Below, one piece after another: positions 1-51,975 of a DNA stretch of 64,000 bases. Where the stretch lies: the NCBI GenBank assembly GCA_943789475.1, contig CALSUG010000002.1, forward strand, positions 1-64,000, read 5' to 3'. The stretch is from an uncultured Alphaproteobacteria bacterium. Its GTDB lineage: Bacteria > Pseudomonadota > Alphaproteobacteria > Micavibrionales > UBA1664. Numbering within the stretch: position 1 is the stretch's first letter; the number at the start of each line of letters is the position of its first letter. The notes below the pieces were generated by a model that did no database searches, had not been told where the DNA came from, and saw only the letters and a program-made list of their open reading frames with translations. A program made the position numbers and the translations under genes.

Positions 1-148
1 CATCTTCTAGTAGTCTAGAAACATTTGTTTTATCCCATGAATATGGGCGCTGATAGGCAGGGATATAGCAACCTTGTCCATTTGTAATCATAAACTCTTT
101 TGTGCTTTGGGCTTTCGCTCCAAATATATTCCCAATATCCAATGCCAT
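1..148 (-). CDS. sspE: SspE-type DUF262 restriction protein, 5' part only
   Basis: This is the first 49 codons of a gene that runs off the left edge. The start is the ATG at 148, with AAGGATT about 10 bases upstream. Residues 28-49 carry the DUF262 (GmrSD N-terminal) hallmark, IPAYQRPYSWD followed by an LLED helix. In SspE proteins a DUF262 NTPase that senses phosphorothioate is joined to a C-terminal HNH-type (DUF1524) nickase that acts on incoming phage DNA. The position right after sspD supports SspE. The C-terminal nuclease lies outside the window, so a plain DUF262 protein cannot be excluded. The 72-base gap before it could hold its own promoter. Confidence 0.8.
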   Translation of the reverse strand, partial: MALDIGNIFGAKAQSTKEFMITNGQGCYIPAYQRPYSWDKTNVSRLLED

Positions 149-220
149 ATGTAGCAATCCTTATAAATTATATTATTTGAATCGATATTAGCAATGTTTT
201 GAGTTTATAACTAGAGAGTA

Positions 221-1060
221 TTATTTATGACAGGCTAAACAAACTTTAGATTTACCATACAGCTCATCCATATCAATTTCCTCGTCTTTTTTTAGTGGGT
301 TTGCAATACGCTTTTGTTTCGCACGCTCTAACCTTTTCTCGTAATCAGCTTTTATTTGAGCTATACGCTCTGGCTTTTCTAGCTCATTTAGAGACTCACG
401 TTCCGACCATGTGAATGGGGAGCCATGTTCAACTGCATTTTTCTCGTATGCTTTTGCTTCTTCAAAGGCATCTGGATGTGTTTCTCTTAGGCGAACCCAT
501 TCTATTTTTCTTTGGAAGAAGCAGAACGTGCATCCACTCCGTGATCGCCAGCTATAATATGCTGGCATTCCTAAACCGGAATGCTCCAATATATTAATAA
601 CACTCTGTTTATCGATACCATCATCTTTAAACGGTAACTTAACGATTAAATTTTCATTATTAGATTTATAACCTTCTCTATATTCTTCATCTGATCGAAT
701 GGCTACATAAGAGTAAACTGTGTAACCATCATCAAGATACGGTTTAACCCACTCTTCAAATGGTTTTAGTTTCATTTTAATAGTACACCAGCGTGCCTGG
801 GCAGAGGGGAGGTAATTGTTGTGCTGCATGAGCCAAAAATCGAAATCACGATTTGGATTAATTCTTAGAACAGGCTTGCCAAGATAGCCTTCTAATTTAC
901 TAAGATACTCATAGACCTCGGGAAGCTCTTTACCTGTATCGGTAAAAAAGTAATCAATATCCAACTCAGGATAATTATCACGCATATAAACAGCCAGCGC
1001 AGCACTATCTTTACCTCCAGATATTCCAAGAACATGTTTTACTTTTTTCTCATCAGCCAT
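221..1060 (-). CDS. sspD: SspD/DndC-like PAPS-reductase-family ATP pyrophosphatase
   Basis: A 279-aa protein of the PAPS-reductase/DndC family. The PP-loop SGGKDS lies at residues 14-19. In Ssp and Dnd systems this enzyme adenylates the DNA backbone and helps pass sulfur from the cysteine desulfurase into a phosphorothioate link. Cysteines in RWCTIK, in the CTFC motif and in the C-terminal CLAC motif could ligate an iron-sulfur cluster, as in DndC; that is inference. The gene overlaps the upstream 227-aa gene by 8 bp, so the two are probably translationally coupled. The neighbours (DUF4007, large ATPase, DUF262, divergent cysteine desulfurase) favour SspD over a metabolic PAPS reductase or a Dnd system. 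Confidence 0.85.
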   Translation of the reverse strand: MADEKKVKHVLGISGGKDSAALAVYMRDNYPELDIDYFFTDTGKELPEVYEYLSKLEGYLGKPVLRINPNRDFDFWLMQHNNYLPSAQARWCTIKMKLKPFEEWVKPYLDDGYTVYSYVAIRSDEEYREGYKSNNENLIVKLPFKDDGIDKQSVINILEHSGLGMPAYYSWRSRSGCTFCFFQRKIEWVRLRETHPDAFEEAKAYEKNAVEHGSPFTWSERESLNELEKPERIAQIKADYEKRLERAKQKRIANPLKKDEEIDMDELYGKSKVCLACHK

Positions 1061-1736
1061 AATTATCCAGCCTTTCTATCATCGGGTTTGCCAGTAGATT
1101 CATATATTCAACACTTAGTTCTGTTAGTGCCGCCAAAACCAATTCAGGATCGGATTCCTTGATGAGTAGTTTTGACACTTGATCTTTAATTTGATTAATT
1201 TCAGGCTTTTTATCTTCAAGCACATCAAATGAGAGTTGGTGGACTTGTTCCTGACCTGACAGCCCTGACATCAACGATATTGCATGGCGGTTTTGTTGTT
1301 TGCCTTTAACACGTGCGTAAAGCTCAGCTTTTTTAAAACCTTGGCACAAAACAGCAATTTCAATACAAGCCCTGTCCACGTCTAAATCAATCCAATCATG
1401 AATAGGTTTATTCGCGGCTAAGCCAGCAATACCAGAAATGCTTTCCTCTGTTTCTTCAAAGGTTGCCAAACGCGCAGCAAGGGCATCAATTCTGAAATCA
1501 CCACTGGATTGTCGGACATTCTCTGCACGCTCACGGAGACGTTTTAATGAGGCTTTGTTGACGATGCCAACTTGCAATTCAGACATAGTGATTTGGCCAA
1601 GTTTGGTCAGAAGATCAGGGTAAGCGTTTGTGATCTCTTCCAATGCCACTGAGAACGCATCCATGCCTTTTTGTTCGTGATCATACATATCAAATAATGT
1701 TGGAATATCATCGAATATGAGCTTATTGGGGGTCAT
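1053..1736 (-). CDS. unrecognised 227-aa gene inside the ssp operon
   Basis: I do not recognise this family. The protein is predicted soluble, largely helical and acidic, with no signal peptide, membrane segment or obvious catalytic motif. It overlaps sspC by 14 bp and sspD by 8 bp, so it is embedded in one operon with them. The four-gene sspABCD set described for Vibrio does not, as I recall it, have a separate gene here. It could be a structural partner of the SspC ATPase, a detached C-terminal domain of SspC, or an accessory factor for SspD. The reading frame and coupling are certain; the function is unknown. Confidence 0.75.
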   Translation of the reverse strand: MTPNKLIFDDIPTLFDMYDHEQKGMDAFSVALEEITNAYPDLLTKLGQITMSELQVGIVNKASLKRLRERAENVRQSSGDFRIDALAARLATFEETEESISGIAGLAANKPIHDWIDLDVDRACIEIAVLCQGFKKAELYARVKGKQQNRHAISLMSGLSGQEQVHQLSFDVLEDKKPEINQIKDQVSKLLIKESDPELVLAALTELSVEYMNLLANPMIERLDNYG

Positions 1737-4365
1737 GCGCTGATTTTAAAATTTCACGCAGTTTCGTAGCTTTTGATGTTAGCGATCTTGTCCTCAAAAC
1801 CCAAGGATTTACGGCCTCAGTAATACCAACTAGCGCCCGAGCCACCTCTAAAGGTGAAGCTTGTTTAGGGAGTTGGATATTTAGCGTTTCTAACGACCCT
1901 AGGTGGTTGGATATTTTTTCAAGGATTTGTTGTTTGGATTTATCATTACTCACATAACGCAAACTAATATCGGCTGTGTTTTTAATCAGGTAGTCGATAA
2001 AGAGATCATCAACCTCTGGGATATATGTTCCATTAAGATAGACGGCTACATGCCCCTTTTTTGCTAAGAGGTAAGATGTGATCAAGTATGTTTGAAGACC
2101 TTTTTTAATCCCAAAGGGTGGCTTTTCCCATTCAGCATATATTTCTTTCAGCTGAATATTGTCTTGTGATTTTTGAAGGATTTTATCAGTTTTCTTCCAG
2201 AGGGGTAAAAGCTGATATGTATCTTTTTTAGGAGTGCCAAAATGCCATTCACCATCTGTGGTTGATTGATAAATGCCCGTATCTTCAAGCAGAATTTTAA
2301 AGATTCCGCCCTCAGCAGGAAAACCATCAATACCAAGTCGCGCTTCGCCATTGTTAAAGATCATACGTTTCAATAAAAGATTAACTGCGGCATTTGCATT
2401 ACTCGAAGGCTTATTGCGATTAAGCATTTCACTTCTTAAAATGGGCGCTTTATCAAAGACAATATCTGCTAGATCAGATGCAGTTGATGCCATTTGACGA
2501 TCTGTCATGCTTCCCATAGATTGAGCATCTTTATACCACTCAGTTTGATTGAGTGTTTGATCAAGCAGGCTTGTAAGCATACTCGAAACAAGGCTATGTC
2601 TGTTTTCGACTTCACGGCGAGCAATTTTATCGCCAGCCAATGATGTGGAGTTTTTCTTGATCCACTCCAGCGCTAATAATTCTTTTGAGAGATCAAGGAG
2701 GTGTTTGTAATTATCTGCAACACTCACAATCTGTGGGAAATCATTAGCTTGGCTTTTATGTTTCTTGACTGTGGCTAAAACAGATTTGTATTCCTGATTG
2801 TCCTTTGGAACAACAATCATAAATTCGCCAAATGCATATGTGGCATCTGTATCTTTTGAGAATTGCAAATCATCGGCTTGAACCAAATGGATATCCATCC
2901 AGCGCATTGCACCTGATTTGTGGTAGTGACGTTTGGCAACGATTGGTTTGAATGATCCAATCTGATTGAGCTTTTTAAAATCAATGTCGTAAATATTTTT
3001 GTAAGCCTCATCCAGCTCTTCATCGATATTAAAGTCACTACCTTCAAACAGCGAATAACTATCGGAATAGCGATTGGCGCGAATAAGGGACAGCCCTTCA
3101 AGTTCTTTGAGTGATTTTTTTAGAGTGCTTGGCTTGAATATTGTTTCCAATAGATCTTTAGAGGCGATAAGCCCTGAGTTACCTTTGAATATATCAATCA
3201 CTGCGATGGCTTGCATTACACGCGTTGTGTAGTCGCCTTCCGTTGAAACAGCACACTTGTTGATCGCCTCGACAGCAACTGCCCAAATTTTAGCGTCTGG
3301 GGATGCAAGGATAGAGCTTTCAAAGTTAGTTCTTAAGTAATCCCAATACATATCAGGTGTGTAGAATGCTTTTTTATCAAAGTCATATTGCTTTAAAAAA
3401 AACTGAAACCCATATGGCTCGGCTGAGCTTAAAAATGAAAAGATGCTTCGCTGGTTTTGGCCAAAACGTTTTCTGGATACTGGTCCCAATAAAGAGGCAA
3501 CAATTGGGTGGAGTGGCCAACAGGCATTCAATGTATTAGCAAAGGCTTTCAGATGTGAAACAGGTTTATTCTTTGCAATTAAATCAGCCGTAGCTTTAGC
3601 CTGTTCGGTTAAGCGCTTTGGCTTATCATCACAAATAATAGCACGTGAGATTAAATCAATTTGCTCTTCACCAGCCGCATTGACTGATAAATCAACAAAG
3701 CGCCCCTGAATTTTTGTCCACTCATCACGCGCAGCCTTAGAAAGATTACGAGAATATTCAGTTAATGACTGGTGCAAGATACCAACAAAGATAAATTGGC
3801 CAGCGCTTCGATTGGCTAACTCTGCAATTTGCTGGAAGAGATAAACGTCAATAGAGCTGTCATTCGTTGCTTTTTCTAAAAACTTACCCATCTCATCGAT
3901 AAAAAGAACAAGTCCGCCGTTAATTTTAGAGCGCTTTTCAAGTTCAGATAAAACATCAGCTGATGTCGCGTCTGTATTGAGCGTTTCAGCCAAAACCTGA
4001 ATCGGATCTTCGGGGATTCCTATAATAGCAATGATTTCTCTTTTTGTTTTGGCAGGGAATATTTTTGTAATAGTCGCCTTATCAAGAGATAGTTTTTGCG
4101 AGGCTGTATCATATAGTTTCTTATTACCAGATGATAATGCGGATAAGAAAACAGCAAGACTTGATTTTCCTGATCCGTAAGGCCCTGTCCATGTAAAGGC
4201 AGACTGCCCGCCTGTTTGAATATGGTCACACATTGAGAGCAAAACATTCTCAGAGGATGGAGGGCAGACGTAATGATTTAAAACCGCAATATCTGAGCGA
4301 TCTTTTTCAAGATTAATAGAGCGCTTGAAACCAGCGCCAATTGTTACTTTTTTCTCAAATTTCAT
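1723..4365 (-). CDS. sspC: SspC-like large P-loop ATPase
   Basis: An 880-aa ATPase. The Walker A motif GPYGSGKS is at residues 61-68 and a Walker B-like LVLFIDE is at about 152-158, followed by a long, mostly helical C-terminal part without motifs I recognise. In Ssp systems SspC is the ATPase that works with the SspB nickase during phosphorothioation. The ATG at 4365 overlaps the sspB stop codon in an ATGA arrangement, the usual sign of coupling. The family match rests on domain type, size and position between a DUF4007 gene and a DndC-like gene. Other large defence ATPases have a similar layout, so the name follows the context. Confidence 0.78.
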   Translation of the reverse strand: MKFEKKVTIGAGFKRSINLEKDRSDIAVLNHYVCPPSSENVLLSMCDHIQTGGQSAFTWTGPYGSGKSSLAVFLSALSSGNKKLYDTASQKLSLDKATITKIFPAKTKREIIAIIGIPEDPIQVLAETLNTDATSADVLSELEKRSKINGGLVLFIDEMGKFLEKATNDSSIDVYLFQQIAELANRSAGQFIFVGILHQSLTEYSRNLSKAARDEWTKIQGRFVDLSVNAAGEEQIDLISRAIICDDKPKRLTEQAKATADLIAKNKPVSHLKAFANTLNACWPLHPIVASLLGPVSRKRFGQNQRSIFSFLSSAEPYGFQFFLKQYDFDKKAFYTPDMYWDYLRTNFESSILASPDAKIWAVAVEAINKCAVSTEGDYTTRVMQAIAVIDIFKGNSGLIASKDLLETIFKPSTLKKSLKELEGLSLIRANRYSDSYSLFEGSDFNIDEELDEAYKNIYDIDFKKLNQIGSFKPIVAKRHYHKSGAMRWMDIHLVQADDLQFSKDTDATYAFGEFMIVVPKDNQEYKSVLATVKKHKSQANDFPQIVSVADNYKHLLDLSKELLALEWIKKNSTSLAGDKIARREVENRHSLVSSMLTSLLDQTLNQTEWYKDAQSMGSMTDRQMASTASDLADIVFDKAPILRSEMLNRNKPSSNANAAVNLLLKRMIFNNGEARLGIDGFPAEGGIFKILLEDTGIYQSTTDGEWHFGTPKKDTYQLLPLWKKTDKILQKSQDNIQLKEIYAEWEKPPFGIKKGLQTYLITSYLLAKKGHVAVYLNGTYIPEVDDLFIDYLIKNTADISLRYVSNDKSKQQILEKISNHLGSLETLNIQLPKQASPLEVARALVGITEAVNPWVLRTRSLTSKATKLREILKSAHDPQ

Positions 4366-5309
4366 GACTCTTGGTATTCCTTTCGGATCAACTCTTTTGC
4401 CTGCGCTTTGATTTCCGGTAATGTTGCTTTGCCGACACGGCTGAACTGACGCATTCCAGCGGTTTCAGACCAGTCCAAAAAATCGCCTACGGTTTCAGAT
4501 GTTTTATAAACATGCTCAAGCAGTGATGTTTCATCCAGCAAAAATATGCGCCCGGGTGAGCCTGCGTCAAAAAGCATAGATTCTAAAGATAAAGAAATGC
4601 TATCGCTATAATTATCCTTCCAAAATTCAGATAAACATAACAAGAAAACACCAGTGCTTAGAGTCGGTTTAGGCCCACGGCTCGGAGAGTAAAAGCCATT
4701 TTTATTAAGCGGTTTGATTAAGGATAACTCAGACAAAGGCGATTCAATTGAATCATCGTTATAGCCAGATTGCGAAAGATCTTTACCAACGTAAGTTCGG
4801 ATAAAGCATTCAACATCACGTTTTAAAGTTGTAGGAGAAGGTAACTTCCAAGACCTAACCTCACATAGATTGCGAAGCTCATCATTTAACGCGCCACGGT
4901 CAAACGCTGCGCCATTATAGTAGTTAAAAAACCAATGGTATGTTGTGAGATTAGGGTTTTTAGAAAGCATAAAATGTAAAATCCAGATCGTGGAGGGGTG
5001 CTCCATCCAAGGATCAAAACCATCATCGGCTAAAATTTCATGGGCTGTTTCTGTTATGATGTTTTTTTCTTTATCTAAAATACCAGTCTGTATTGCCCAA
5101 TGACGCATTGAAACAACCATATTTTTACCAACACCAAAGGCTGATATCATTTCAGGATTATTGAAGACGTCCTTTGCATCAAGGTTATCATTCGTTGCTG
5201 AATGAACCTCATCATAGGTTTTCTTAAGCCATCCATAGCGGAGAGGGAATGTTTCATGACCTGAGAAACTAGGCCTTACATCTTCATTTTCATATAATTT
5301 ACCGCGCAT
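4362..5309 (-). CDS. sspB: SspB, DUF4007-family protein
   Basis: A 315-aa protein with the DUF4007 signature near its N-terminus (SGHETFPLRYGWLKK, residues 16-30). DUF4007 is the family of SspB, the protein reported to nick DNA during single-strand phosphorothioation. It is the first gene of the leftward operon and is coupled to sspC by a 4-bp overlap. Its start lies about 110 bp from the divergent sspA start. Its leader contains TGTTCCAAGAA, the same element that precedes sspA. The family is clear; the nicking role is taken from characterised relatives. Confidence 0.85.
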   Translation of the reverse strand: MRGKLYENEDVRPSFSGHETFPLRYGWLKKTYDEVHSATNDNLDAKDVFNNPEMISAFGVGKNMVVSMRHWAIQTGILDKEKNIITETAHEILADDGFDPWMEHPSTIWILHFMLSKNPNLTTYHWFFNYYNGAAFDRGALNDELRNLCEVRSWKLPSPTTLKRDVECFIRTYVGKDLSQSGYNDDSIESPLSELSLIKPLNKNGFYSPSRGPKPTLSTGVFLLCLSEFWKDNYSDSISLSLESMLFDAGSPGRIFLLDETSLLEHVYKTSETVGDFLDWSETAGMRQFSRVGKATLPEIKAQAKELIRKEYQES

Positions 5310-5420
5310 CTTTTATCTTTCTTGGAACATCTAACCAAACAAATCTTGCATTAATTTCATACTGTCATATATTTAGAGTTATTGGAAGAGTGTTCCAAGA
5401 AGGAATGAGATTTTTTTAAC
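5310..5420. promoter_or_regulatory. divergent sspA/sspB control region with an 11-bp inverted repeat
   Basis: The 111-bp gap between the two divergent ssp starts is AT-rich. The element TGTTCCAAGAA occurs twice in opposite orientation, at 5319-5329 (reading toward sspB) and 5391-5401 (reading toward sspA). Each copy ends about 10-20 bases before its own start codon, so both mRNAs could carry the same leader element. It may be a shared operator or an mRNA-level control site. Confidence 0.55.
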
Positions 5421-6587
5421 ATGTATTTTGATAATAACGCATCAACGCCGACTGATCCTGAAATAAACAAGTTATTTCAACAGGTTAATTCGAATTTAGA
5501 AATAGGAAACCCCCATTCTGCTGAACATCAGCATGGATGGAACGCATCTCGCCTCATTGAAGAATCACAGGAAATTGTGGCAGATTTTATCAATGCTTTG
5601 CCAGAAGAAGTTTATTTTACATCAGGGGCAACAGAATCGAATAATTGGGCGATTATAGGAACAGGGCTTGCTGCACAAAAAGCAAAGAGTGATAGAAACG
5701 AAATTATTGTGTCGGCCATTGAGCATAAATGCGTTTTAAACGCCGCACATTTTTTGGAAGAATTTCACGGATTTATTGTTAAAGAAGCGCCTGTTACCGC
5801 AGATGGTATCGTTGATTTAGATGCGCTAAAAAATCTTATAAGCGATAAAACGCTTTTGGTTTCAATCATGGCCGTAAATAATGAAATTGGAACAGTGCAG
5901 CCGATCAAGGATGTAGGTCAAATCTGCCGACAAAACGGTTCAGTTTTTCATGTTGATGGTGCACAAGGGGCTTATTCAAATATTGATATCATAGAAAATA
6001 ACATCGATATGTTGAGCCTGTCAGGTCATAAGATATATGCGCCTAAAGGCATAGGCGTTTTATTTATCAGTGAGGATTTATCGCCTAAGCCAATATCATT
6101 AATGCATGGTGGAGATCAACAAAACGGTATGAGGGCAGGAACACTATCACCAGCGCTTTGCCGTTCCATGGCGATGGCTTTTGAAATATTGAAAGAGAAT
6201 AAAGATAGTGAAATCGGGCATCTGAAATCACTGCGAGGTCAATTTTTAAATGGTCTTAAAAACAAAAATATAGGCTTCAAGGTCAATGGAAACATAGATC
6301 ACCGTCATCCTGGCAATCTAAATATTCAAATTTTGGGAGTAGATGCTAAAACATTGATTACGCGCCTACAGCCGAATGCTGCAATTTCAACAGGATCAGC
6401 GTGCAATGCAGGCATGATAAAATCATCTTATGTATTAGAGGCACTAGGATTAAGTAATGATCAAATTGAAAGCTCTGTAAGAATTGGCTTTGGACGTTTT
6501 AATGGTAAAGATGAAGTCGAAAGAGCGCTTAATCAAATAATTGAAATCATTCAAAATGTAAAAGAGCCATTAGCTCTCAGCGCTTGA
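5421..6587 (+). CDS. sspA: SspA/DndA/IscS-like cysteine desulfurase
   Basis: A 388-aa PLP-dependent class V aminotransferase. It has the NNEIGT region, the Schiff-base lysine in SGHKIYAPKG (K204) and the catalytic cysteine in STGSACNAG (C328). It would mobilise sulfur from cysteine for SspD. The gene is divergent from sspBCD, an arrangement known for Ssp loci. The start matches the family N-terminus (MYFDNNAST); the nearest AGGA lies about 16 bases upstream, which is long. No Fe-S scaffold genes accompany it, so a role in general Fe-S assembly is less likely. Its end overlaps a convergent small gene by 18 bp. Confidence 0.87.
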   Translation: MYFDNNASTPTDPEINKLFQQVNSNLEIGNPHSAEHQHGWNASRLIEESQEIVADFINALPEEVYFTSGATESNNWAIIGTGLAAQKAKSDRNEIIVSAIEHKCVLNAAHFLEEFHGFIVKEAPVTADGIVDLDALKNLISDKTLLVSIMAVNNEIGTVQPIKDVGQICRQNGSVFHVDGAQGAYSNIDIIENNIDMLSLSGHKIYAPKGIGVLFISEDLSPKPISLMHGGDQQNGMRAGTLSPALCRSMAMAFEILKENKDSEIGHLKSLRGQFLNGLKNKNIGFKVNGNIDHRHPGNLNIQILGVDAKTLITRLQPNAAISTGSACNAGMIKSSYVLEALGLSNDQIESSVRIGFGRFNGKDEVERALNQIIEIIQNVKEPLALSA

Positions 6588-6938
6588 TTTATAATCTAGA
6601 TTTTTATCAATCTCTGGCTCATCCCATTCACGCGTAAAACGTTTGTGGTAATCCATATTTTTATCAAAGCGTGGATCGTCACCTTGCATGAAAAATGTAT
6701 AAAGACGATTAACAGCGCCTGTCATTAGAACTTTCATTTCATCATCAGAGATATGTGACATTTTATCCCACGAATATTCATTACCCTCTGCGTCTATCAC
6801 TTTAACATCAGAATAATCTCCTGTTTTTGTGATGGGTGATTTACCAGAATGGATATTTTCAATCTCGGCATTGCGAACACACATTGCCACTAATGTTTTG
6901 GCAAGCTCAGCCGAATGCTTTTGATCAAATATACTCAT
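6570..6938 (-). CDS. uncharacterised 122-aa protein at the phage/ssp boundary
   Basis: The family is not recognised. The protein is soluble and acidic, with no signal peptide or membrane segment, and has a Trp/Asp-rich C-terminus. It reads in the same direction as the phage late genes and overlaps the end of sspA tail to tail by 18 bp. It could be the last late gene of the prophage or a host gene. This makes the prophage/ssp border tight, without a clear spacer. Confidence 0.6.
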   Translation of the reverse strand: MSIFDQKHSAELAKTLVAMCVRNAEIENIHSGKSPITKTGDYSDVKVIDAEGNEYSWDKMSHISDDEMKVLMTGAVNRLYTFFMQGDDPRFDKNMDYHKRFTREWDEPEIDKNLDYKSSAES

Positions 6939-25256: not shown

Positions 25257-26042
25257 ATGGATGAATTTATTAACTCGCTTCTGATCTTGCATAAAGACTA
25301 TCAAGACCTCATTAATCTTATAAAAGACGTCATATTTTTTGCTGGAGCCTATGCATTTTTTCATGGCGCGTATTTATTTGTGAGATATTTGAGGAATAAG
25401 AAATACCAGAGTGTTTCATATGCCATTCATGAAAATCTTAAATTTCGAGAGAAAATTGAACACGATCTTGATCCTTTTATTCGAGAAACTGCAAAGAATA
25501 CCAAAGATGTTTCTATAAGGTTTGTGCATTGGAAAAATTACCCATGGAATCTTGATGATGATGGGTATAAATTTTTATTAAGAATAAACTATATAGAAAA
25601 CAAAAAGCCTCACTATGGGTGGATTGATAATACGGGCATTAATTTTGAAGAGCCTCTAAGTTTTTTCAGTAACAGTGTGTATATTGATAAAGATGACATC
25701 TTTTTTATTGCTGAAAAAAATCAATCCTTTAAAGGATTCAGAGAATATAAAGACAGTGTTTTGATTTTACATCTTCCTTTCACTAACATTGTTAACTTTG
25801 ATTTTAAACAAAGAATTGAATATGAACCTGTCTTTTATACTCGTTACTATTACAGGCAGTGGAAAAAATTATATGATGACCTTGTAATTCTTCGTGAAAA
25901 AGAAGGTGCAAAATATTTAAATTATGACTTAAGCCAAACAAGGATGCTTAAGAAATATAGCTGGCTTAGCTATCATGCCCTCAAAGTGAAATTATGGTTC
26001 TTCCATTTGTTTAACTCTAAAGATACGGATCATCCGCTTTGA
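25257..26042 (+). CDS. reverse-oriented membrane moron, 261 aa
   Basis: The family is not recognised. It has one clear membrane helix at about residues 22-45, then a cytoplasmic domain rich in Tyr, Phe and Lys with several predicted strands. It faces against the late operon, between gpW and the large terminase, and overlaps the terminase end by 26 bp. It is clearly more AT-rich than the flanking phage genes, a sign of separate origin. A superinfection-exclusion or defence role is possible but inferred only from position and membrane anchoring. Confidence 0.75.
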   Translation: MDEFINSLLILHKDYQDLINLIKDVIFFAGAYAFFHGAYLFVRYLRNKKYQSVSYAIHENLKFREKIEHDLDPFIRETAKNTKDVSIRFVHWKNYPWNLDDDGYKFLLRINYIENKKPHYGWIDNTGINFEEPLSFFSNSVYIDKDDIFFIAEKNQSFKGFREYKDSVLILHLPFTNIVNFDFKQRIEYEPVFYTRYYYRQWKKLYDDLVILREKEGAKYLNYDLSQTRMLKKYSWLSYHALKVKLWFFHLFNSKDTDHPL

Positions 26043-30727: not shown

Positions 30728-30747
30728 AATTTGTTCGCGAACAAATT
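30728..30747. repeat. perfect 20-bp palindrome, copy 3 of the AATTTGTTCGC family
   Basis: AATTTGTTCGCGAACAAATT is a perfect palindrome that overlaps the stop codon of the 554-aa gene. The same half-site occurs at 43554-43591 and 45928-45957. Confidence 0.75.
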
Positions 30748-32410
30748 ATTTTGGATGTGCCTCTAGATGTTTTTTCAAAGCAGATACTACTGGCTTGCTT
30801 TGTAGTGCCATTAACATTTGTTCTGAAACACCGACTGGTCGATTATCATTGCTGTAAGAGTTAGGATTGTTAACGACATCAATAAATTGCGCAGGAGAAA
30901 AACCATCATCTTTATGGGGATCTGTAACAGGCTTTAATCTCCAATTCCACTCTTTCATTTGCTTATATTCCGATTCTGTTAAAAGCATTTTGGCCGTCGC
31001 CTTATATGCCTCTGGCCTTGAACGTGGAAACATAGACATGTGATCCCAACCTTTTTCTGTAAGATCATCGATCTGCAAATCAATATCATCTTTGTTAATT
31101 CCTTTAAGATCAAGCACGCGATCTAAAGTCTCAGAGATTTGAGATTGCTTAGCTTCAATAACTTTTGGAAGCTTCTTTTCCTTATATTCTTGATACTCAA
31201 GATCAAAGGCTTCCATATTATATCTAATTTTCTTAAGGCCCTTTTCTCGTCTTTGTATCTCATCCGCAAAGTCAGGATTTTCAGCAAGTTCATCCATAGC
31301 TTTACGATGAGAAGATAATTGTGCTCTATGTCTTTCTGATTTTATTTCTAACTCACGAATTTGCTCAATATCATGCTCAAAATCCATCTCGTATGGACGT
31401 CTTATTTCATAAGCACCGAATGGCTGAATAATATCGTAAAGAAGGTTCATCGGCTCTTCTTCGTTTCTTCCTAAAGACAAAAATACATCTTTCGACTTTA
31501 GCAAACTTGCATCCAACAAACCGCTATCAACAATGGTGTCTAATGTTTCTATAAATTCATTCGCTTTATGATCATTTTTCCAGTGAGCCATTATTGCGAG
31601 TACTGTTCGAATTTTAGGAATACTATACGCACTGATAACAGAACCTAAACTGTTCAATGCTGTTATAAAACCCAGATTGATAACTTCTTCATCATCCGTT
31701 CTGTAATCGGTTGTTATAGAGTCAAATTTACCTAACGGTCTGTCATGGTAAATTCCACCTAACCGATCTAATCCAAGTGAAGAAAAACCATAGCCTCGAG
31801 CATCAAACGTTTTGGCAATGTCTTTGTCTGACTTTATGTATTGAGCAAGTTGATTCAGAAAGTCAGGAAGCATTTTAGCAAGCATGTGCCTGTGTTTGGG
31901 TGACAGTGATTTAAAATCAGCATCGTTTAATTCAACTGAATAACCGTCGCTCAAGCCTTTAGGAGCTGTCGTGCCCTCTACAAAAGCGATTACAGAAGGT
32001 TTTTTGCCCGAATTGTGTGATTTGACTGTTAATGGCAGCTGAGGTATATGCGGAGAATACTGGCCATTTTTAATAACCATATATCCATGGCTTGCCAATT
32101 CAGCAAACGTTACGTCAGCTTTACGGTTCATTTTCTGATTGTAATGTTCGACGCGCTCCGTAATTTCAGGATTGATGTCATCAAGTTCTGACTGCCATCT
32201 TGGAACATCAGCATACTCAGGATAATCACTAATCAAAAACTCTATACGTTCACGTCGCTTAAGCCTTTCACTCAGTTCTTTAGCACCGTATGTATAGGCG
32301 TGGGTAACCATCCATCTTTTTTCTATTCCGGCATATGCTTTACATGCATTGCGAAATGCAATGTGTGGAAATTTTGCGTTTTTGTTAAAGTCAGCATGCA
32401 TACGATACAT
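30746..32410 (-). CDS. uncharacterised 554-aa protein (prophage accessory)
   Basis: I do not recognise this protein. It is soluble, has no signal peptide or membrane segment, and has a long coiled coil at about residues 345-450. No nuclease, ATPase or protease motif is evident. The RBS AAAAGGAGAATTTT is strong. The gene stands alone between the early control genes and the MTase, with a terminator after it, so it forms its own unit of about 1.7 kb. In such a place accessory defence or lysogenic-conversion genes are common; that is inference. Confidence 0.75.
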   Translation of the reverse strand: MYRMHADFNKNAKFPHIAFRNACKAYAGIEKRWMVTHAYTYGAKELSERLKRRERIEFLISDYPEYADVPRWQSELDDINPEITERVEHYNQKMNRKADVTFAELASHGYMVIKNGQYSPHIPQLPLTVKSHNSGKKPSVIAFVEGTTAPKGLSDGYSVELNDADFKSLSPKHRHMLAKMLPDFLNQLAQYIKSDKDIAKTFDARGYGFSSLGLDRLGGIYHDRPLGKFDSITTDYRTDDEEVINLGFITALNSLGSVISAYSIPKIRTVLAIMAHWKNDHKANEFIETLDTIVDSGLLDASLLKSKDVFLSLGRNEEEPMNLLYDIIQPFGAYEIRRPYEMDFEHDIEQIRELEIKSERHRAQLSSHRKAMDELAENPDFADEIQRREKGLKKIRYNMEAFDLEYQEYKEKKLPKVIEAKQSQISETLDRVLDLKGINKDDIDLQIDDLTEKGWDHMSMFPRSRPEAYKATAKMLLTESEYKQMKEWNWRLKPVTDPHKDDGFSPAQFIDVVNNPNSYSNDNRPVGVSEQMLMALQSKPVVSALKKHLEAHPK

Positions 32411-34051: not shown

Positions 34052-34110
34052 ATGCAGGGGGGTAGCTGGAGGGGGATGATGGTGGGATGTGGTAGGATCA
34101 GCTGGGGGAT
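34049..34110. repeat. left arm of about 62-bp inverted repeat, G-rich on + strand
   Basis: This arm is matched, inverted and with about 50 of 62 positions identical by eye, at 35517-35579. It contains several runs of four to six G on the + strand. It covers the last codons of the gene at 34098 and its 3' UTR. Confidence 0.8.
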
Positions 34111-34859
34111 GAGGTGGTATTCAATGCCATTATAAAATCAGGGTGAAGCCAGTAATAGCCTCGGCTATCATGACATATCAGGTCTTTCCAATCGGGCTGA
34201 CTTTTAAACACATCACGCATTCGCATGGATTGTGATCCGGCTTCAACAAATAAGCGTTTAAAATGCACTTTTGGATCACCAGCGCATGCTGCCTTATAAA
34301 GTTGTTTGAGGATATCGGCCTGTACCAAACCAAAGGCAAACTCTTGTCCTTTAAAAACAACATTATCAAAATTTGGATTATGCGCTGGTTGTGTTGCCTT
34401 GCGCTGGAGGTCTGGAATGATGTCGGCCAAACGTGCAATAGCGGTGACCTTAATATCATTGGTTTTTTGCTTTTGGCGATGTTGAACAAGGCTATCTTCC
34501 AAAACAACTAAGTCTTGTGCTTCAACCCAATAATTAGCAACACCATGCCTGAGAACAATCTCTTCCCCGTCTTGTGTGCCAGGAAAGGATCGGACAGGAA
34601 TGCGTTTGGATTTCATGATTTGGCGCACATCAACGGGGTAAAGCTGAACATAGCCTTCATAGGTGCGCTCTGATTTTGTAAAGACCACTTGATCCGCTAT
34701 TTTCTTCTGCTTCACTTCATTCACAACTGTGTAAGGCAACCACGCATGCACTGGTAATCGTCCATGGTAAATATCATGCAAAACAGATTGCTCACTAATC
34801 GATCTTAAACTTGCGATTTCGTTTATAGTGTAGCTTGTCTCGACTGCGATATTATCCAT
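34098..34859 (-). CDS. phage control-region protein with N-terminal HTH, 253 aa
   Basis: The N-terminal 45 residues (YTINEIASLRSISEQSVLHDIYHGRLP) look like an HTH of the excisionase/MerR type; the remainder is not recognised. It is divergent from the S24 gene at 35025 and shares the intergenic region with it, the place of a Cro- or Cox-like regulator or an early activator. Its last codons lie in the left inverted repeat, so its 3' UTR is almost the same as that of the S24 gene. Confidence 0.65.
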   Translation of the reverse strand: MDNIAVETSYTINEIASLRSISEQSVLHDIYHGRLPVHAWLPYTVVNEVKQKKIADQVVFTKSERTYEGYVQLYPVDVRQIMKSKRIPVRSFPGTQDGEEIVLRHGVANYWVEAQDLVVLEDSLVQHRQKQKTNDIKVTAIARLADIIPDLQRKATQPAHNPNFDNVVFKGQEFAFGLVQADILKQLYKAACAGDPKVHFKRLFVEAGSQSMRMRDVFKSQPDWKDLICHDSRGYYWLHPDFIMALNTTSSPS

Positions 34860-38330: not shown

Positions 38331-38404
38331 TGGCTGGGGTACCTGGATTCGAACCAGGGATGGCGATACCAAAAACCGCTGCCTTACCGCTTGGCTATAC
38401 CCCA
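38331..38404 (-). tRNA. tRNA-Gln (TTG)
   Basis: The minus strand folds as a full tRNA: acceptor TGGGGTA/TACCCCA (U1-A72, typical of Gln), D arm GCC..GGC, anticodon loop TTTTGGT with anticodon TTG, T arm CCTGG-TTCGAAT-CCAGG, discriminator G and encoded CCA. Confidence 0.93.
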
Positions 38405-38413
38405 ACAATGAAA

Positions 38414-38459
38414 TGGTGCCGCAAACAGGATTCGAACCCGTGGCCTGATGATTGCAAAT
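38414..38459 (-). pseudogene. 3' half of a tRNA (from anticodon loop to CCA)
   Basis: The minus strand has a TTTGCAA anticodon-loop-like stretch, a T arm with a standard TTCGAAT loop, an acceptor 3' strand and CCA. The 5' half is replaced by AT-rich DNA without a D arm. The loop would read TGC, but the acceptor lacks the G3-U70 pair of tRNA-Ala, so the identity is open. It may be an att remnant. Confidence 0.6.
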
Positions 38460-38632
38460 TAAAATATGTCTATATTAATATAGTTTAATATATCGTGATA
38501 TTAAGCCATAAAATGTAGTTAAAATTTAAGTATTTTTAGGTTTGATTTTAGTTTTGAAAGCACCCCTCTTAATATAAGGCAAACCACCTCCATATCTTTC
38601 AGCATTATTATTACATTGTTTTTATAAATGTA

Positions 38633-43706: not shown

Positions 43707-44012
43707 ATGGTACTTATATCACTATCAAAAGCACAAAAGCAACTTGCGCAAAACACACGCGCAAAACGCTTGCAAATGGATCTAACACAGGCAGGTCTAT
43801 CAAAACGATCTGGTGTCCCGTTGGCAACATTACGCAATTTTGAACAAAAAGGCAGCATATCACTTGAATCATTTTTAAAGTTACAGATGGTTTTAGGAAC
43901 GTTAGAGGATATTTTGCAAGCAACGCAGGTGAAAGAAACTGCATTTTCATCCATCGATGATGTCTTAGAATCGGATAATATTCTCCCTCGGCAAAGAGGA
44001 AAACGTGAATGA
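43707..44012 (+). CDS. hipB: HipB-like antitoxin, HTH_3
   Basis: A 101-aa protein. Its Cro/CI-type HTH runs from about residue 8 to 62 (TRAKRLQMDLTQAGLSKRSGVPLATLRNFEQ). It precedes hipA with a 4-bp overlap, the usual order of hipBA. It would bind HipA and repress the operon; the palindrome at 43554 could be its operator, but this is not tested. Confidence 0.88.
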   Translation: MVLISLSKAQKQLAQNTRAKRLQMDLTQAGLSKRSGVPLATLRNFEQKGSISLESFLKLQMVLGTLEDILQATQVKETAFSSIDDVLESDNILPRQRGKRE

Positions 44013-45247
44013 GTGCATTTCAAGCAATAAAAGAAATTAAAGTCGGAATTGATTTTGGCGATGGCATAATTCCTGTCGGTCGATTGGCAATTCGTGATCG
44101 TGTTATTTACTTTGAATATGATCGCGGTTTTATCGATCATGGCATGGAGATATCACCGTTGCGTCTACTATTACAATCTGGTGTTCAGCAATTTGATTAT
44201 GATCTTTTTGAAGGACTACCTGGTGTTTTTAACGACAGTCTCCCTGATGGATGGGGACGATTACTTTTTGATCGATATATTCGATCAAAAGGGCAATTAC
44301 CATCCGGCGTAACACCATTAGATCGTCTCGCCCATATCGGTCAATATGGTCTAGGTGCGTTGGTGTTTGAACCTGATCATAGCGCTGATGAAACGCAAGA
44401 TAATATCAATTTGGATACCCTTGCAAACCAAGCACAAGAAGTTTTAGACGGCGCCTCGGATGATGTTCTGGCGGAACTCATCGCACTCAATGGATCATCT
44501 GCTGGAGCAAGACCAAAGGCTCTTATTGGAGTTAATAAAAAACGAGATCATATTATCCATGGTGCACATGAATTGCCCCAAGGTTATGAACCATGGATCG
44601 TAAAATTTCCCAATACGCAAGATGGTATGGACGCAGGTGCCATTGAATATGTGTATGCTCTCATGGCGAAAGAGGCTGGCATTATCATGCCCGATGTGCA
44701 TTTGTTTCCAGCGCAACACGGCGCAGGATATTTTGCTATTAAACGCTTTGATCGGGATGGAGAGAAGCGATACCACATGCACACGGCCTGCGGGTTACTT
44801 CATTCGGATTTCCGCACACCGTCAATGGATTACGAAGATTTAATCGCCTTGACCAGTATGTTAACACGTGATGTACGCGAGATTGAAAAACTATACAGGC
44901 AGACCGCGTTTAACGTGCTAGCGCATAACCGTGATGACCATTCAAAGAATTTTAGTTATTTGATGGATGACAATGGACAATGGACACTTTCCCCTGCCTA
45001 TGATCTTACATTTTCATCAGGACCACGTGGAGAGCAAAGCACAATGGTCATGGGTGAAGGACGCAATCCAAATACGGAACATCTATTAAAACTTGCAGAT
45101 GAGGCCAGCATCAAAAAAGATTGTGCCGTTGAAATTATCGAAACTATAGAATCATGCCTTGCCAAATGGCCAGAACTTGCAAAACAATATGGTGTTCACA
45201 AAGCAAACATCGATCTAATCGGCAAAAAAATTAACAGTGATGGTTAA
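44009..45247 (+). CDS. hipA: HipA-like serine/threonine kinase toxin
   Basis: A 412-aa HipA-family kinase. The N-terminal DGWGRLLFDRYI segment is followed by the ATP-site region GSSAGARPKAL and the catalytic HNRDDHSKN (D309, N314), then SPAYDLT. HipA toxins phosphorylate glutamyl-tRNA synthetase or related targets and induce persistence. The length is close to the E. coli protein. It overlaps the convergent phosphatase by 17 bp. Confidence 0.92.
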   Translation: MSAFQAIKEIKVGIDFGDGIIPVGRLAIRDRVIYFEYDRGFIDHGMEISPLRLLLQSGVQQFDYDLFEGLPGVFNDSLPDGWGRLLFDRYIRSKGQLPSGVTPLDRLAHIGQYGLGALVFEPDHSADETQDNINLDTLANQAQEVLDGASDDVLAELIALNGSSAGARPKALIGVNKKRDHIIHGAHELPQGYEPWIVKFPNTQDGMDAGAIEYVYALMAKEAGIIMPDVHLFPAQHGAGYFAIKRFDRDGEKRYHMHTACGLLHSDFRTPSMDYEDLIALTSMLTRDVREIEKLYRQTAFNVLAHNRDDHSKNFSYLMDDNGQWTLSPAYDLTFSSGPRGEQSTMVMGEGRNPNTEHLLKLADEASIKKDCAVEIIETIESCLAKWPELAKQYGVHKANIDLIGKKINSDG

Positions 45248-48703: not shown

Positions 48704-50428
48704 TTACTCCCATGCAACGTTTACAGAGCCACTATCAAAGTTTCCTGTTGTTGCAAATTCAATTGTTGTTAATTCTTCTGTAAGTGTTTTGACCCCTGAC
48801 ACTGTACCTGTTCCATGAATACCGTTAGATATAGCCCCAGATAGCACCCATTTATTACCACCCATATTAATCAATGTTAATGAACCTGTTAAAAAGTTAG
48901 TCGATACACTGAACCCAGAAGATAGTAAAATAAATTGTGTTGTGCTTGATGAACTTGAAGTACCACTTCCTACACCTGTTGCCATGGAAACATATCCAGT
49001 GTTTTCTATACCACCTGCATCACCGATTCTTAAAAACGGGGGTGTTGATGTGTCTGTAGACATTTCATCAAACATGATTGTCACACGTTTAGCACCCGAT
49101 GGAATGGTAAACGTTTTCGATGTTCCTGACGTGGTTGCTTGTTCTGTTCCAATAGAAAGACCAGAATTGCTTGCCACCTGTGTATCCACATAGTTTTTTA
49201 CCACTGCACAATCAGGAAACTGATCTGCTGTACCAGCACTCATATCACCTGATGTTGCTTTTTGCACGACACCTTTATTGCTCCCTGATGCAGAAGGTAC
49301 GGATAATGTCATCGTTTCATTGCCACCATCGTTTTGCAGGGTTTTGATAACATTTGAGCCGGCAAGCAATTTGCTATTCAAATCACCAGCAATTGCATCA
49401 TTGGACGTGATTTTAACCGCACCAGAAACAGCCGCCGCCGCTTGTTGCGCGTAATGTTTTGCCGAATATTCACTTCCGTCAACTGTACCGCTTGTTTTTA
49501 TTGCCCAGTCTTCTGCTAAATCTGCGCTATTTGATGCATTTGTTGCATGGGTAGAAGAGTTTGCTTCACTCGTTGCCGCATTTGTTGCCGATGTTGCAGC
49601 ATTTGTTTCACTGGTTGCAGACGCGGTTGCGCTTGATTGTGCATTATTTGCTGATGTATCAGCAGATTCCGCCGATGCGGAAGCAGCATTCACTAATGTT
49701 GAAGGTGCAGAAATAAATATATTATTTGTGCCTGTAACTGGCGCAGTTGAAAAAGTTATTGTATCACCGTTTAATGTGTATTCGTTAGGATTAACCAAGC
49801 CAGAAGCACCTTTGCCTTCTTTATTGGGTTGAGCAATGAATATGTTGTCTGTGCCATTAACTGGGGCTGTATTAAACGTTAATGTTTCTCCATCAACAGT
49901 GTATGACGATGGATTTTGTGGTTCACCACCAATAAATACAATTAATGACTTTTCATCTGTTCCCATGTCTTGAGACAATGTAAATTCTGTTTCTGTATCA
50001 TCACCTGAAAATGATTGAAAAAATCCTGATGTGGATTCTGATACAAAAACCATGATTGATTTTTCATCTGTTCCCAAATCCTGTGACAAATTAAAGGCTG
50101 TTGTTGTTCCATCACCAGACAAAGATTCAAAGTAAGCATTTCCCGATGAAACCGCCGCGGCAGAGAATGCAGAAACATTATCTGTTTCTTCAATCAAATT
50201 ACCGTCAACATCCTCAACACGAAATTTATATGCTCCTGAAATCCATATTGTTGTTTTGCCTTGTGCATCTAAAACAATTGGATTGGCGGCTTGTGTATCA
50301 CCGGATGCGTCCGTAAACGTTGCTTTTGGTGTCGTTGTTCCTGCGGCATATGTGTATACCTTCCCCCCTGCCAAGGGATTATCTCCATTAAAAAATTGAA
50401 GATATGGTGGCGTAAGTAATACTGGCAT
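48704..50428 (-). CDS. tail fibre, prophage 2
   Basis: A 574-aa fibre. The N-terminus (PYLQFFNGDNPLAGGKVYTYAAGTT) is the common podovirus virion-attachment domain. Two tandem repeats follow, one built on LSQDxGTDEKSxxVF and one on TAPVxGTxNIFI. Then come an Ala/Ser/Thr-rich shaft and a module (NSKLLAGSN, QNDGGNE, MSAGTADQFPD) that is homologous to the prophage-1 fibre. The C-terminus is beta-rich. Confidence 0.85.
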   Translation of the reverse strand: MPVLLTPPYLQFFNGDNPLAGGKVYTYAAGTTTPKATFTDASGDTQAANPIVLDAQGKTTIWISGAYKFRVEDVDGNLIEETDNVSAFSAAAVSSGNAYFESLSGDGTTTAFNLSQDLGTDEKSIMVFVSESTSGFFQSFSGDDTETEFTLSQDMGTDEKSLIVFIGGEPQNPSSYTVDGETLTFNTAPVNGTDNIFIAQPNKEGKGASGLVNPNEYTLNGDTITFSTAPVTGTNNIFISAPSTLVNAASASAESADTSANNAQSSATASATSETNAATSATNAATSEANSSTHATNASNSADLAEDWAIKTSGTVDGSEYSAKHYAQQAAAAVSGAVKITSNDAIAGDLNSKLLAGSNVIKTLQNDGGNETMTLSVPSASGSNKGVVQKATSGDMSAGTADQFPDCAVVKNYVDTQVASNSGLSIGTEQATTSGTSKTFTIPSGAKRVTIMFDEMSTDTSTPPFLRIGDAGGIENTGYVSMATGVGSGTSSSSSTTQFILLSSGFSVSTNFLTGSLTLINMGGNKWVLSGAISNGIHGTGTVSGVKTLTEELTTIEFATTGNFDSGSVNVAWE

Positions 50429-50470: not shown

Positions 50471-51973
50471 TTATTTTGTTGATTGTGTTTTACTTGTTGC
50501 AGTTGGTATTTGTTTTAATAGTTCACGCGCCTGTGGTGGAGGAAGTTTCATAATTTCCTGAATTGATAACCTTGGCTGTGTTTGAACCATTCCGCTTTTT
50601 TCTGCAATCATACGCGCTACGTCATTTGCTTTTCCGAGTTGCATACGTGTCGCAGAATTTCTTGCTGCCATTGCTGTTGCCGCCCCTGCTGTACCAGCAC
50701 CTAATCCCCCTGTTGTCGCTGATACAATAGGGATTAAACGGCTTCCTGCTGTTCTTAACAAATCAGAAGTAACTCCCGATTCTGCTGCTTTTTTAATGGC
50801 CTTGGCTTCATCCATTGAAAACCCCTTCATTCGATTTGGATTTGAATAAAGAGTACGGAATCCAGATTTTATAGATGTTGCTGGATTGTCGGTCATTTCA
50901 GCACGTTGAATAATTCGTTCAATATCGGAAAGTCTATGAGAAGTTGCCCATAATTTTTTTCCCTCTTTCCAAGCCTTAAAACCTTCTTTACCACCCTCTA
51001 AAACTGTTTCGTCCGCTTTATCGATCATATTACGAAGTGTGGTTTGGATATCAAAAAGTTTTTTTCCTTGTTTTGTGAGTCGCCCCATTTCAGTAAAATC
51101 ATCAACAACATCCCCAAGAAGTTCATCAAGCTCTTGTGCTGCATCTAATGTCATTGGTCTATTACGAATAGTAGATATTTTTTCAACAACTTTTGAAAAC
51201 GGTGTATCTCCACCAATAATTTGTCCTATATCAGTTTGGGGTTTCAGTTTTTCAATATCATCGACAAATTTATTGGTAAATTCAGCTTTTAGAATACCAC
51301 CTTTTTGTTCCGCAAGCCTATAGAAATCGCCGGCCTTCGCTCTGATTTGATCCGCATTAGGAACGATAACACGTTTATTTAACCGAGATGCCGCAGCACC
51401 GATAGCAGGCACAAGCCCCCCAGTAGCACCGCCAAAAATTGCGCCTTGTCCAGCAGATTTAAGTCGTTCTTGTCCTTCACCAGAGCCATATCCATATAAT
51501 CCGCCGGATGACGCACCTGCAAGCACACCTTTGCCCACACGCGCCGCGGTGTTACCAGTGCGAAGAGTATTCGCAATAGCGGCTCCCGTTTTTGTCGCTG
51601 CTCCCGTAAGTCCTGTTCCAATTGCGCCTCCTATTTCAGAAACACCAGAAATAATAGGTTCTTCATTCCTAAATTGCTTGGTTCTGTTTCTTTCATCTGC
51701 AAGGATTTGATTATAACTATCTGATACAGAATTTCCAGTAAATAGAGAGGCCACAGGCGCAGAAACACCAGCCACGACTTCATCACCGAAACCAAATGTG
51801 TTGCCCTGCGTATAAGAACGCAAAGCACCTTCAAATTTATTGATATTATCATCAGGTTGATTAGCACCTGTTTCATTTGGAAACTTGGATGCAATCAATT
51901 CTTTGATTTCTTCTTTTGGCATTTCATCAGGAAAACTGACAAGAACACCATCGGGCATACGAACATTAGGCAT
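50471..51973 (-). CDS. putative internal/ejection protein, 500 aa
   Basis: A 500-aa protein that starts MPNVRMPDGVLVSFPDEMPKEEIKELIASKFP, a motif seen at the start of some podovirus internal proteins. The middle is Ala/Gly-rich with hydrophobic stretches (IGGAIGTGLTGAATKTGAA), as in proteins that cross the membrane during DNA ejection. AGGAG precedes the ATG at 51973. Confidence 0.65.
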   Translation of the reverse strand: MPNVRMPDGVLVSFPDEMPKEEIKELIASKFPNETGANQPDDNINKFEGALRSYTQGNTFGFGDEVVAGVSAPVASLFTGNSVSDSYNQILADERNRTKQFRNEEPIISGVSEIGGAIGTGLTGAATKTGAAIANTLRTGNTAARVGKGVLAGASSGGLYGYGSGEGQERLKSAGQGAIFGGATGGLVPAIGAAASRLNKRVIVPNADQIRAKAGDFYRLAEQKGGILKAEFTNKFVDDIEKLKPQTDIGQIIGGDTPFSKVVEKISTIRNRPMTLDAAQELDELLGDVVDDFTEMGRLTKQGKKLFDIQTTLRNMIDKADETVLEGGKEGFKAWKEGKKLWATSHRLSDIERIIQRAEMTDNPATSIKSGFRTLYSNPNRMKGFSMDEAKAIKKAAESGVTSDLLRTAGSRLIPIVSATTGGLGAGTAGAATAMAARNSATRMQLGKANDVARMIAEKSGMVQTQPRLSIQEIMKLPPPQARELLKQIPTATSKTQSTK

Positions 51974-51975
51974 TA

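What the first reader, a model, noticed from the sequence alone, without database searches (positions are those of the whole stretch)
1..6587. Ssp-type phosphorothioation locus directly beside a prophage
sspA is divergent from sspB, sspC, an extra gene, sspD and sspE. The modules (cysteine desulfurase, DUF4007, large ATPase, DndC-like enzyme, DUF262) match the SspABCD-SspE defence system, which modifies one DNA strand with phosphorothioate and restricts unmodified phage DNA. The locus appears intact up to the window edge.
Basis: partly seen in the sequence, partly recalled or inferred. Interest (0 to 1): 0.75.

Follow-up and report, generated by a model that had tools for sequence, protein, structure and literature searches.

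The report
Ordinary Ssp locus, unreported promoter operator
Next to a prophage sits a known kind of bacterial anti-phage system that puts sulfur into the DNA backbone; its apparent extra gene is just the tail of one protein cut off by a single extra base, probably an assembly error, but comparing it with about 80 relatives exposed a conserved DNA switch in its promoter that I could not find described.

Summary
Window 1-6587 encodes SspA (divergent), SspB, SspC, SspD and the first 52 residues of SspE, all with strong profile matches. Three corrections. (1) The 'extra gene' (1053-1736) is the C-terminal fifth of SspC, separated by one extra C in a C-run inside a conserved motif; SspC is one open frame in nearly every relative examined. 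This assembly carries other single-base insertions in conserved genes (accA, asd, ftsH), so a sequencing/assembly indel is the likeliest cause. (2) The locus is not shown intact: the window edge is the contig edge, and the rest of sspE is not in the assembly. (3) The prophage is real, and its conserved block stops exactly at the sspA terminus; whether Ssp is prophage cargo or flanking DNA is undecidable here.

The unexpected result is in the 111-bp sspA-sspB promoter. Ssp loci from about a dozen phyla share an inverted repeat CTGG-N9-CCAG (53 of 62), usually two copies about 57 bp apart flanking a sigma-70-like promoter. The window has both copies as TTGG-N9-CCAA. Each half-site contains CCA, the published Ssp modification motif. 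I propose autoregulation by an Ssp protein, most likely SspB. The operator is well supported; what binds it is inference.

The parts
2..157 (-). sspE, first 52 residues only (TTG-initiated ORF; probable ATG start at 148); cut by the contig end. Contains YQR (residues 35-37 of the ORF) at the position of the PT-sensing Tyr of solved SspE.
   Evidence: PADLOC SspE 6.1e-20; PDB 20yw/7drr matches over residues 6-52; Y63 of E. coli SspE and Y30 of Streptomyces SspE are the PT-sensing residues in PMC13251355 / PMC9646914; contig edge
221..1060 (-). sspD, PAPS-reductase-like sulfurtransferase, 279 aa; SGGKDS loop and CxxC pairs at 177/180 and 274/277
   Evidence: PADLOC SspD 3.7e-137 over the whole protein; 82-83% identical to L004/L005; motifs
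   Evidence: matches positions 892-1043 of the same SspC profile whose 3-893 the upstream ORF matches; contiguous with it in one frame in relatives
1728..1732 (-). run of five C (GACCCCCAAT) where the closest relative L005 has four (GACCCCAAT): one extra base that breaks the DPNK-x-(L/I)-F-(D/E)-D-I motif of SspC
   Evidence: junction alignment
1723..4365 (-). sspC, N-terminal 880 aa: Orc/Cdc6-clade AAA+ ATPase (Walker A GPYGSGKS at 61, Walker B FIDE at 155)
   Evidence: PADLOC SspC 2e-304; motifs
4362..5309 (-). sspB, DUF4007 protein, 315 aa; relative of a solved SspB (6juf)
   Evidence: Pfam 3.5e-75; PADLOC 6e-94; PDB 2.2e-22
5322..5338 (.). operator O2, proximal to sspB: TTGG-N9-CCAA (variant of the family consensus CTGG-N9-CCAG)
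5382..5398 (.). operator O1, distal: TTGGA-N7-TCCAA, 60 bp from O2 (family spacing 53-63)
5421..6587 (+). sspA, cysteine desulfurase, 388 aa; PLP lysine in SGHK (201-204), catalytic cysteine in GSAC (325-328)
   Evidence: PADLOC SspA 1.4e-122; PDB matches to IscS and SspA 6m4j; motifs
6570..6938 (-). last conserved prophage gene (122 aa, function unknown); its 3' end overlaps the 3' end of sspA. Boundary of the Ssp locus.
   Evidence: 92% identical protein in IMG/VR contig L085, whose homology to the window ends at 6569

Best explanation
This is an SspABCD-SspE DNA phosphorothioation defence locus. Inferred mechanism, from the characterised family: SspA takes sulfur from cysteine, SspD carries it, SspB recognises and nicks 5'-CCA sites, the SspC AAA+ ATPase loads or moves along DNA, sulfur is put into one strand, and SspE senses the mark and nicks unmarked phage DNA. 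Shown here: the genes, their order and their active-site motifs. SspC is probably a single protein in the living cell; the one extra C that splits it is most likely an assembly error. Expression is probably controlled by the locus itself: two operators of the family type CTGG-N9-CCAG (TTGG-N9-CCAA here) flank the sspB promoter and are bound by a protein that travels with the locus, most likely SspB, acting as a repressor. Inferred, not shown: PT formation, restriction, the identity of the operator-binding protein, and the sign of regulation.
For: Family: profile, structure-database and motif matches for A, B, C, D and the SspE N-terminus. SspC split: both ORFs match adjacent parts of one profile; relatives read through the site in one frame; one extra C against the closest relative. 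Assembly error: 4 further single-base insertions in 165 orthologues of this genome, including accA and asd (plus ftsH in an earlier pass), none in 179 tested the other way in G005. Operator: 49/62 exact CTGGA-N7-TCCAG against 0.21 expected, CTGGA ranked first among all 1024 5-mers; spacing exactly 7 in 77/77, density 7.4/kb against 0.003/kb elsewhere; fixed two-site geometry around TTGAC; 6 of 7 held-out divergent or sspB-first loci have a site with at most 1 mismatch; across 385 genomes the four good paired sites all lie at ssp loci; present across the SspB tree in about a dozen phyla. SspA and SspE are not needed: sites occur in E. coli sspBCD loci without sspA.
Against: Most of sspE is unseen, so the restriction half is unproven. 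No raw reads, so a real frameshift in sspC cannot be excluded; the excess of indels is modest (4/165 vs 0/179, p about 0.05). In the window the operators deviate from consensus (2 and 3 of 10 positions), although almost symmetrically. Nothing here shows binding, regulation or PT. A host regulator conserved across phyla is not excluded.
Confidence: 0.8

Rival explanations
1. The sspC split is real and the system is inactivated: a genuine +1 frameshift has made a pseudogene of sspC.
For: The assembled sequence says so. Two of 74 relatives also have a broken or shortened SspC frame (L062, L039). The rest of sspE is missing from the assembly.
Against: The same assembly has single-base insertions in accA, asd and ftsH, which are expected to be essential. 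The C-terminal part is as conserved (55% to L005) as the N-terminal part (57%), so there is no decay. At the measured error rate, about 9% of 3.3-kb genes would be hit by chance.
Confidence: 0.17
2. The split is real and functional: SspC works as two polypeptides, through the overlapping ATG at 1736 (translational coupling) or +1 slippage on CCC-C.
For: The second ORF has an ATG 14 bases before the end of the first; CCC.C is slip-prone and +1 slippage would restore the exact residues DPNK.
Against: No relative is split here. The ATG lies in the codons of the H-D residues, so it would arise without selection. The A-site codon is a sense codon, not a stop, unlike classical +1 sites (own knowledge).
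Confidence: 0.06
3. The operator is bound by a host transcription factor, not by an Ssp protein.
For: Single sites occur at low number in most genomes, with or without Ssp. No Ssp protein has been shown here to bind it.
Against: The same site is kept in ssp loci of Proteobacteria, Acidobacteriota, Chloroflexota, Planctomycetota, Verrucomicrobiota, Gemmatimonadota, Cloacimonadota and others. Paired sites of good quality are found only at ssp loci in 385 genomes. Only sspB, sspC and sspD are common to all operator-bearing loci.
Confidence: 0.2
4. The repeat acts as an RNA hairpin in the leader transcript rather than as a DNA operator.
For: CTGGA-N7-TCCAG can form a 5-bp stem.
Against: The distal copy lies upstream of the -35 of sspB; inner positions 5-11, 6-10 and 7-9 show little or no covariation (p 0.05, 0.2, 0.6); the half-site letters are fixed rather than compensated.
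Confidence: 0.05
5. The locus is a Dnd or type 4 BREX system rather than Ssp.
For: DndC, DndA and BrxC/BrxP models also match, more weakly. Type 4 BREX shares SspB, C and D homologues (PMC12839542).
Against: SspD scores 454.6 bits against 23.1 for DndC; SspC 1010.7 against 297 for BrxC. No PglZ in the genome. SspE start present.
Confidence: 0.02

Closest known systems
SspABCD-SspE of Vibrio cyclitrophicus FF75 / Streptomyces yokosukanensis / E. coli 3234/A
   Same: All five gene families; PT-sensor YQR in SspE; catalytic Cys and PLP Lys in SspA
   Different: sspE is downstream and co-directional here, while it is convergent in all 17 related loci where a custom SspE profile finds it. This is not unique: the E. 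coli 3234/A cluster is described as an sspBCDE operon, and on a Sphingomonas plasmid sspE is divergent and upstream. sspC frame broken as assembled; sspE incomplete.
Loci L005 (Neisseriaceae MAG) and L004 (Rickettsiales MAG)
   Same: Closest SspB/SspC/SspD (SspC 57% and 48%, SspD 82-83%, SspB 62% to L005); same divergent sspA; operator pair at similar spacing
   Different: SspC is one frame; L005 has a full convergent SspE; operators closer to CTGG/CCAG
DndB-type autoregulation of dnd clusters and self-regulation of restriction-modification promoters (own knowledge; regulatory role of DndB noted in PMC12707154)
   Same: Modification system with a dedicated operator in its own promoter
   Different: No DndB here; different operator; the proposed binder is the DNA-recognition subunit itself, and the half-site contains the modification motif
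Type 4 BREX
   Same: Homologous BrxC/SspC, DUF4007 and PAPS-reductase
   Different: No PglZ in the genome

Membership tests
SspABCD phosphorothioation module | SspB (DUF4007), SspC (AAA+ ATPase) and SspD (PAPS-reductase-like) encoded together | tested here: met
   SspC is in two ORFs as assembled
SspABCD phosphorothioation module | cysteine desulfurase SspA (or IscS) with PLP lysine and catalytic cysteine | tested here: met
SspABCD phosphorothioation module | uninterrupted SspC reading frame (expected of a working system, not a criterion of family membership) | tested here: not met
   one extra C at 1728-1732; probably an assembly error
SspABCD phosphorothioation module | phosphorothioate at 5'-CCA in genomic DNA | not testable with these tools
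   needs DNA and LC-MS/MS
SspE restriction effector | N-terminal DUF262 with YQR PT-sensing patch | tested here: met
   52-residue fragment only
SspE restriction effector | DGQQR GTPase motif and C-terminal HNH/DUF1524 nuclease | tested here: inconclusive
   contig ends at residue 52; no GmrSD_C match elsewhere in the assembly
Type 4 BREX | PglZ with the PT genes | tested here: not met
   no PglZ in the genome
Dnd | DndC/DndD/DndE-type components | tested here: not met
   DndC 23.1 bits against SspD 454.6; DUF4007 and SspC in place of DndE/DndD
conserved Ssp operator (described here) | paired CTGG-N9-CCAG, 53-63 bp apart, in the sspA-sspB intergenic region | tested here: inconclusive
   geometry met (60 bp) and dyads present, but half-sites are TTGG/CCAA instead of CTGG/CCAG

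The most novel reading that the evidence does not exclude
Ssp systems across bacterial phyla regulate themselves through a conserved operator pair whose half-sites contain the system's own modification motif (CCA): the recognition subunit SspB, or the phosphorothioate state of the operator, throttles transcription, so that production of the PT machinery is tied to how well the chromosome is already marked.
Probability: 0.35. Interest if true: 0.68.

Novelty: new member of a known kind. Interest (0 to 1): 0.42.

Why it matters
As a locus this is one more Ssp system, found in one genome and in none of 54 relatives searched. What matters beyond it is regulation: how Ssp avoids harm and sets its dose is not described in the papers I could read. 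A short, conserved operator present from E. coli to Acidobacteriota, with the PT motif in each half-site, makes that question testable with a gel shift and a reporter. It also shows how a one-base assembly error can pose as a new defence gene.

Tried and rejected
Searched the genome for the missing part of sspE with SspE, GmrSD_N and GmrSD_C profiles and with a custom SspE profile against 3 kb at contig ends fetched by then: nothing. Looked for closely related Ssp loci in viral contigs and phages to verify the C-run: only 26-36% relatives. Tried to settle whether Ssp is inside the prophage by comparing prophage flanks and tRNA-Gln neighbourhoods: the flank is variable and the left end is off the contig, so undecided. 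Considered sspE orientation as a novelty: dropped, because arrangements vary. Considered programmed frameshifting: dropped for lack of conservation. Two PADLOC calls failed for wrong coordinates, and one paper query was malformed.
Full report
What is there. Window 1-6587 holds sspA on the + strand and, divergently on the - strand, sspB, sspC, a 227-aa ORF, sspD and the start of sspE. PADLOC gives SspA 1.4e-122, SspB 6e-94, SspC 2e-304, SspD 3.7e-137 and SspE 6.1e-20, with Dnd and BREX models far behind except for the SspA/DndA pair, which are close relatives. SspB matches a solved SspB (6juf, 2.2e-22), and the SspE fragment matches solved SspE proteins (20yw, 7drr). Active-site motifs are in place: SGHK and GSAC in SspA, Walker A and B in SspC, SGGKDS and two CxxC pairs in SspD, YQR in SspE. 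The YQR tyrosine aligns with Y63 of E. coli SspE, whose mutation abolishes defence (PMC13251355), and corresponds to Y30 of the Streptomyces protein (PMC9646914).

The contig edge. The window is bases 1-64000 of contig C2 of a 1.97-Mb, nine-contig assembly, so sspE is cut at residue 52 by the end of the contig. No other SspE, GmrSD_N or GmrSD_C match exists in the assembly. The claim that the locus is intact up to the window edge therefore cannot be extended to a working system.

The extra gene. The 880-aa ORF matches SspC profile positions 3-893 and the 227-aa ORF matches 892-1043 of the same profile. In the relatives collected from 84,980 species genomes and from 385 genomes of the same class, SspC is a single open frame of about 1,100-1,160 aa; the exceptions among those that span the site are L062 (broken elsewhere) and L039 (shortened). 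At the junction relatives read (A)(H)DPNK.LFDDI; the closest, L005, has GAG GAC CCC AAT AAG and the window has CAT GAC CCC C AAT AAG. So one extra C makes the split.

Error or mutation. I compared this genome with a relative of the same family (G005). Among 165 orthologues (49 kaa) four had the reading frame broken by one extra base in this genome: an M3 peptidase related to Dcp/oligopeptidase A, a HemW-like protein, accA and asd, the last three named from their sequences. A fifth candidate was a spurious ORF over rRNA and was dropped. In the reverse direction there were none in 179. An earlier pass also found ftsH broken. accA, asd and ftsH are expected to be essential, so these look like sequencing or assembly insertions. 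At that rate about 9% of genes the size of sspC would be hit, against about 3% of relatives with a broken sspC. The excess (4/165 vs 0/179) is only p about 0.05, so I hold the error explanation at roughly three to one.

The prophage. Lysozyme, tail, tape-measure, capsid, protease, portal and terminase genes, an S24 repressor-like protein and a large serine recombinase lie between 6.6 and 38 kb. An IMG/VR contig (L085) is 87% identical over 5 kb and its similarity ends at window 6569, the end of the last phage gene; beyond it L085 has a GNAT gene. Homologues of that last gene elsewhere, including a second copy on contig C3 of the same genome, are followed by other genes: Fic, HipA, GNAT, ABC transporter. 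Ssp therefore abuts a variable flank of the prophage. Whether it is prophage cargo or resident DNA is open, because the left end is not assembled. None of the 54 relatives searched has a relative of this SspB, so it is a recent or rare acquisition.

The operator. The 111-bp sspA-sspB intergenic region has an 11-bp perfect inverted repeat. Looking at the same region in relatives led to a shared element. In 62 divergent sspA-sspB regions, CTGGA followed within 16 bases by TCCAG occurs in 49; dinucleotide shuffles give 0.21 on average and at most 1. A scan of all 1024 five-mers ranks CTGGA first with 49 loci; the runners-up overlap it. All 77 exact sites have a spacing of exactly 7, and their density is 7.4 per kb against 0.003 per kb in the rest of the same loci. 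Thirty-eight loci have two sites (at most 1 mismatch) whose starts lie 53-63 bp apart, most often 57; in most of them TTGAC follows the distal site by 6-8 bp and the proximal site follows the -10 region. With the minimal form CTGG-N9-CCAG, 53 of 62 loci qualify.

Checks on the operator. Loci not used to find it: four divergent plasmid loci, one plasmid sspB-first locus and two E. coli loci. Six of these seven have a site with at most 1 mismatch and the seventh has one with 2 (a 2-mismatch site is weak evidence alone); six sspA-first operons have none. The E. coli loci and the Polaromonas locus lack an adjacent sspA, and many operator loci lack sspE, leaving SspB, SspC and SspD as the only proteins common to all. 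In 385 genomes the paired pattern hits 12; the four with CTGGA-type half-sites are all Ssp-positive and at the ssp locus, the other eight are similar in number to the reversed-pattern control. Single sites are not enriched in Ssp-positive genomes, so no wider regulon is evident. On an SspB tree the operator is present in 70 of 85 rows from about a dozen phyla and is missing mainly in one supported clade, that of the sspA-first operons. Inner positions show little or no covariation, so a DNA operator is likelier than an RNA hairpin.

The window's version. O1 is TTGGAAGAGTGTTCCAA (5382-5398) and O2 is TTGGAACATCTAACCAA (5322-5338), 60 bp apart. All four half-sites read TTGG/CCAA instead of CTGG/CCAG; the closest relative L005 has one mixed site. 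The change is symmetric and keeps CCA, which is the published Ssp modification motif 5'-C(PS)CA (PMC8092258, PMC9646914). That the half-site contains the motif could be coincidence: a random 5-mer contains CCA on either strand roughly one time in ten (own estimate).

Reading. The geometry, with one site over the start of transcription and one above the -35, is that of a repressor. SspB has several winged-helix DNA-binding modules (PMC10853773, PMC12839542) and is the natural candidate. Binding, sign of regulation and any role of PT are inference. Four paper searches for regulation of ssp or dnd promoters found no description of this element, but the primary Ssp paper (Xiong 2020) is not in the library and could mention it.

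Verdict. An ordinary Ssp locus with one probable assembly error and an incomplete sspE, next to a real prophage. The operator is the part worth following.

Noticed in passing
window 6570-6938; L085, L107, L108, L109, L110, L111, L112: A 122-aa gene of unknown function marks the conserved end of this prophage family; beyond it different genomes carry different cargo (Ssp here; GNAT, Fic, HipA, ABC transporter elsewhere), so it may be a hotspot for defence or toxin-antitoxin genes.
   Followed up: partly
window 38331-38460; G000:C8:180013; G000:C3:276038: The serine recombinase of the prophage sits beside tRNA-Gln followed by a degenerate 3' fragment of a tRNA (probably Thr). Two other recombinase-bearing elements in the same genome sit beside tRNA-Gln copies, suggesting repeated use of a tRNA-Gln/Thr attachment site.
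   Followed up: partly
G000:C5:72561, C5:192060-192278, C5:257204, C8:8794, C8:147985: Single extra bases break the M3-peptidase, ftsH, accA, asd and hemW-like genes in this assembly; other apparent gene splits in this genome should be doubted.
   Followed up: yes
window 25257-26042: A 261-aa + strand ORF between the portal and terminase genes, opposite to all neighbours, has no PHROGs or Pfam match.
   Followed up: no
window 30746-32410, 34098-34859, 48704-50428, 50471-51994, 51976-53136: Long ORFs without any Pfam match at E<=0.001.
   Followed up: no
window 43767-45195: HipA-like gene to the right of the prophage with a 69% identical copy near the 122-aa gene in a relative of the same genus (L110).
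   Followed up: no
downstream of sspD in L004-L070: Many relatives of this Ssp branch have no recognisable SspE but other large genes after sspD (for example 730-aa co-directional or 1790-aa convergent ORFs), possible further effector modules.
   Followed up: no
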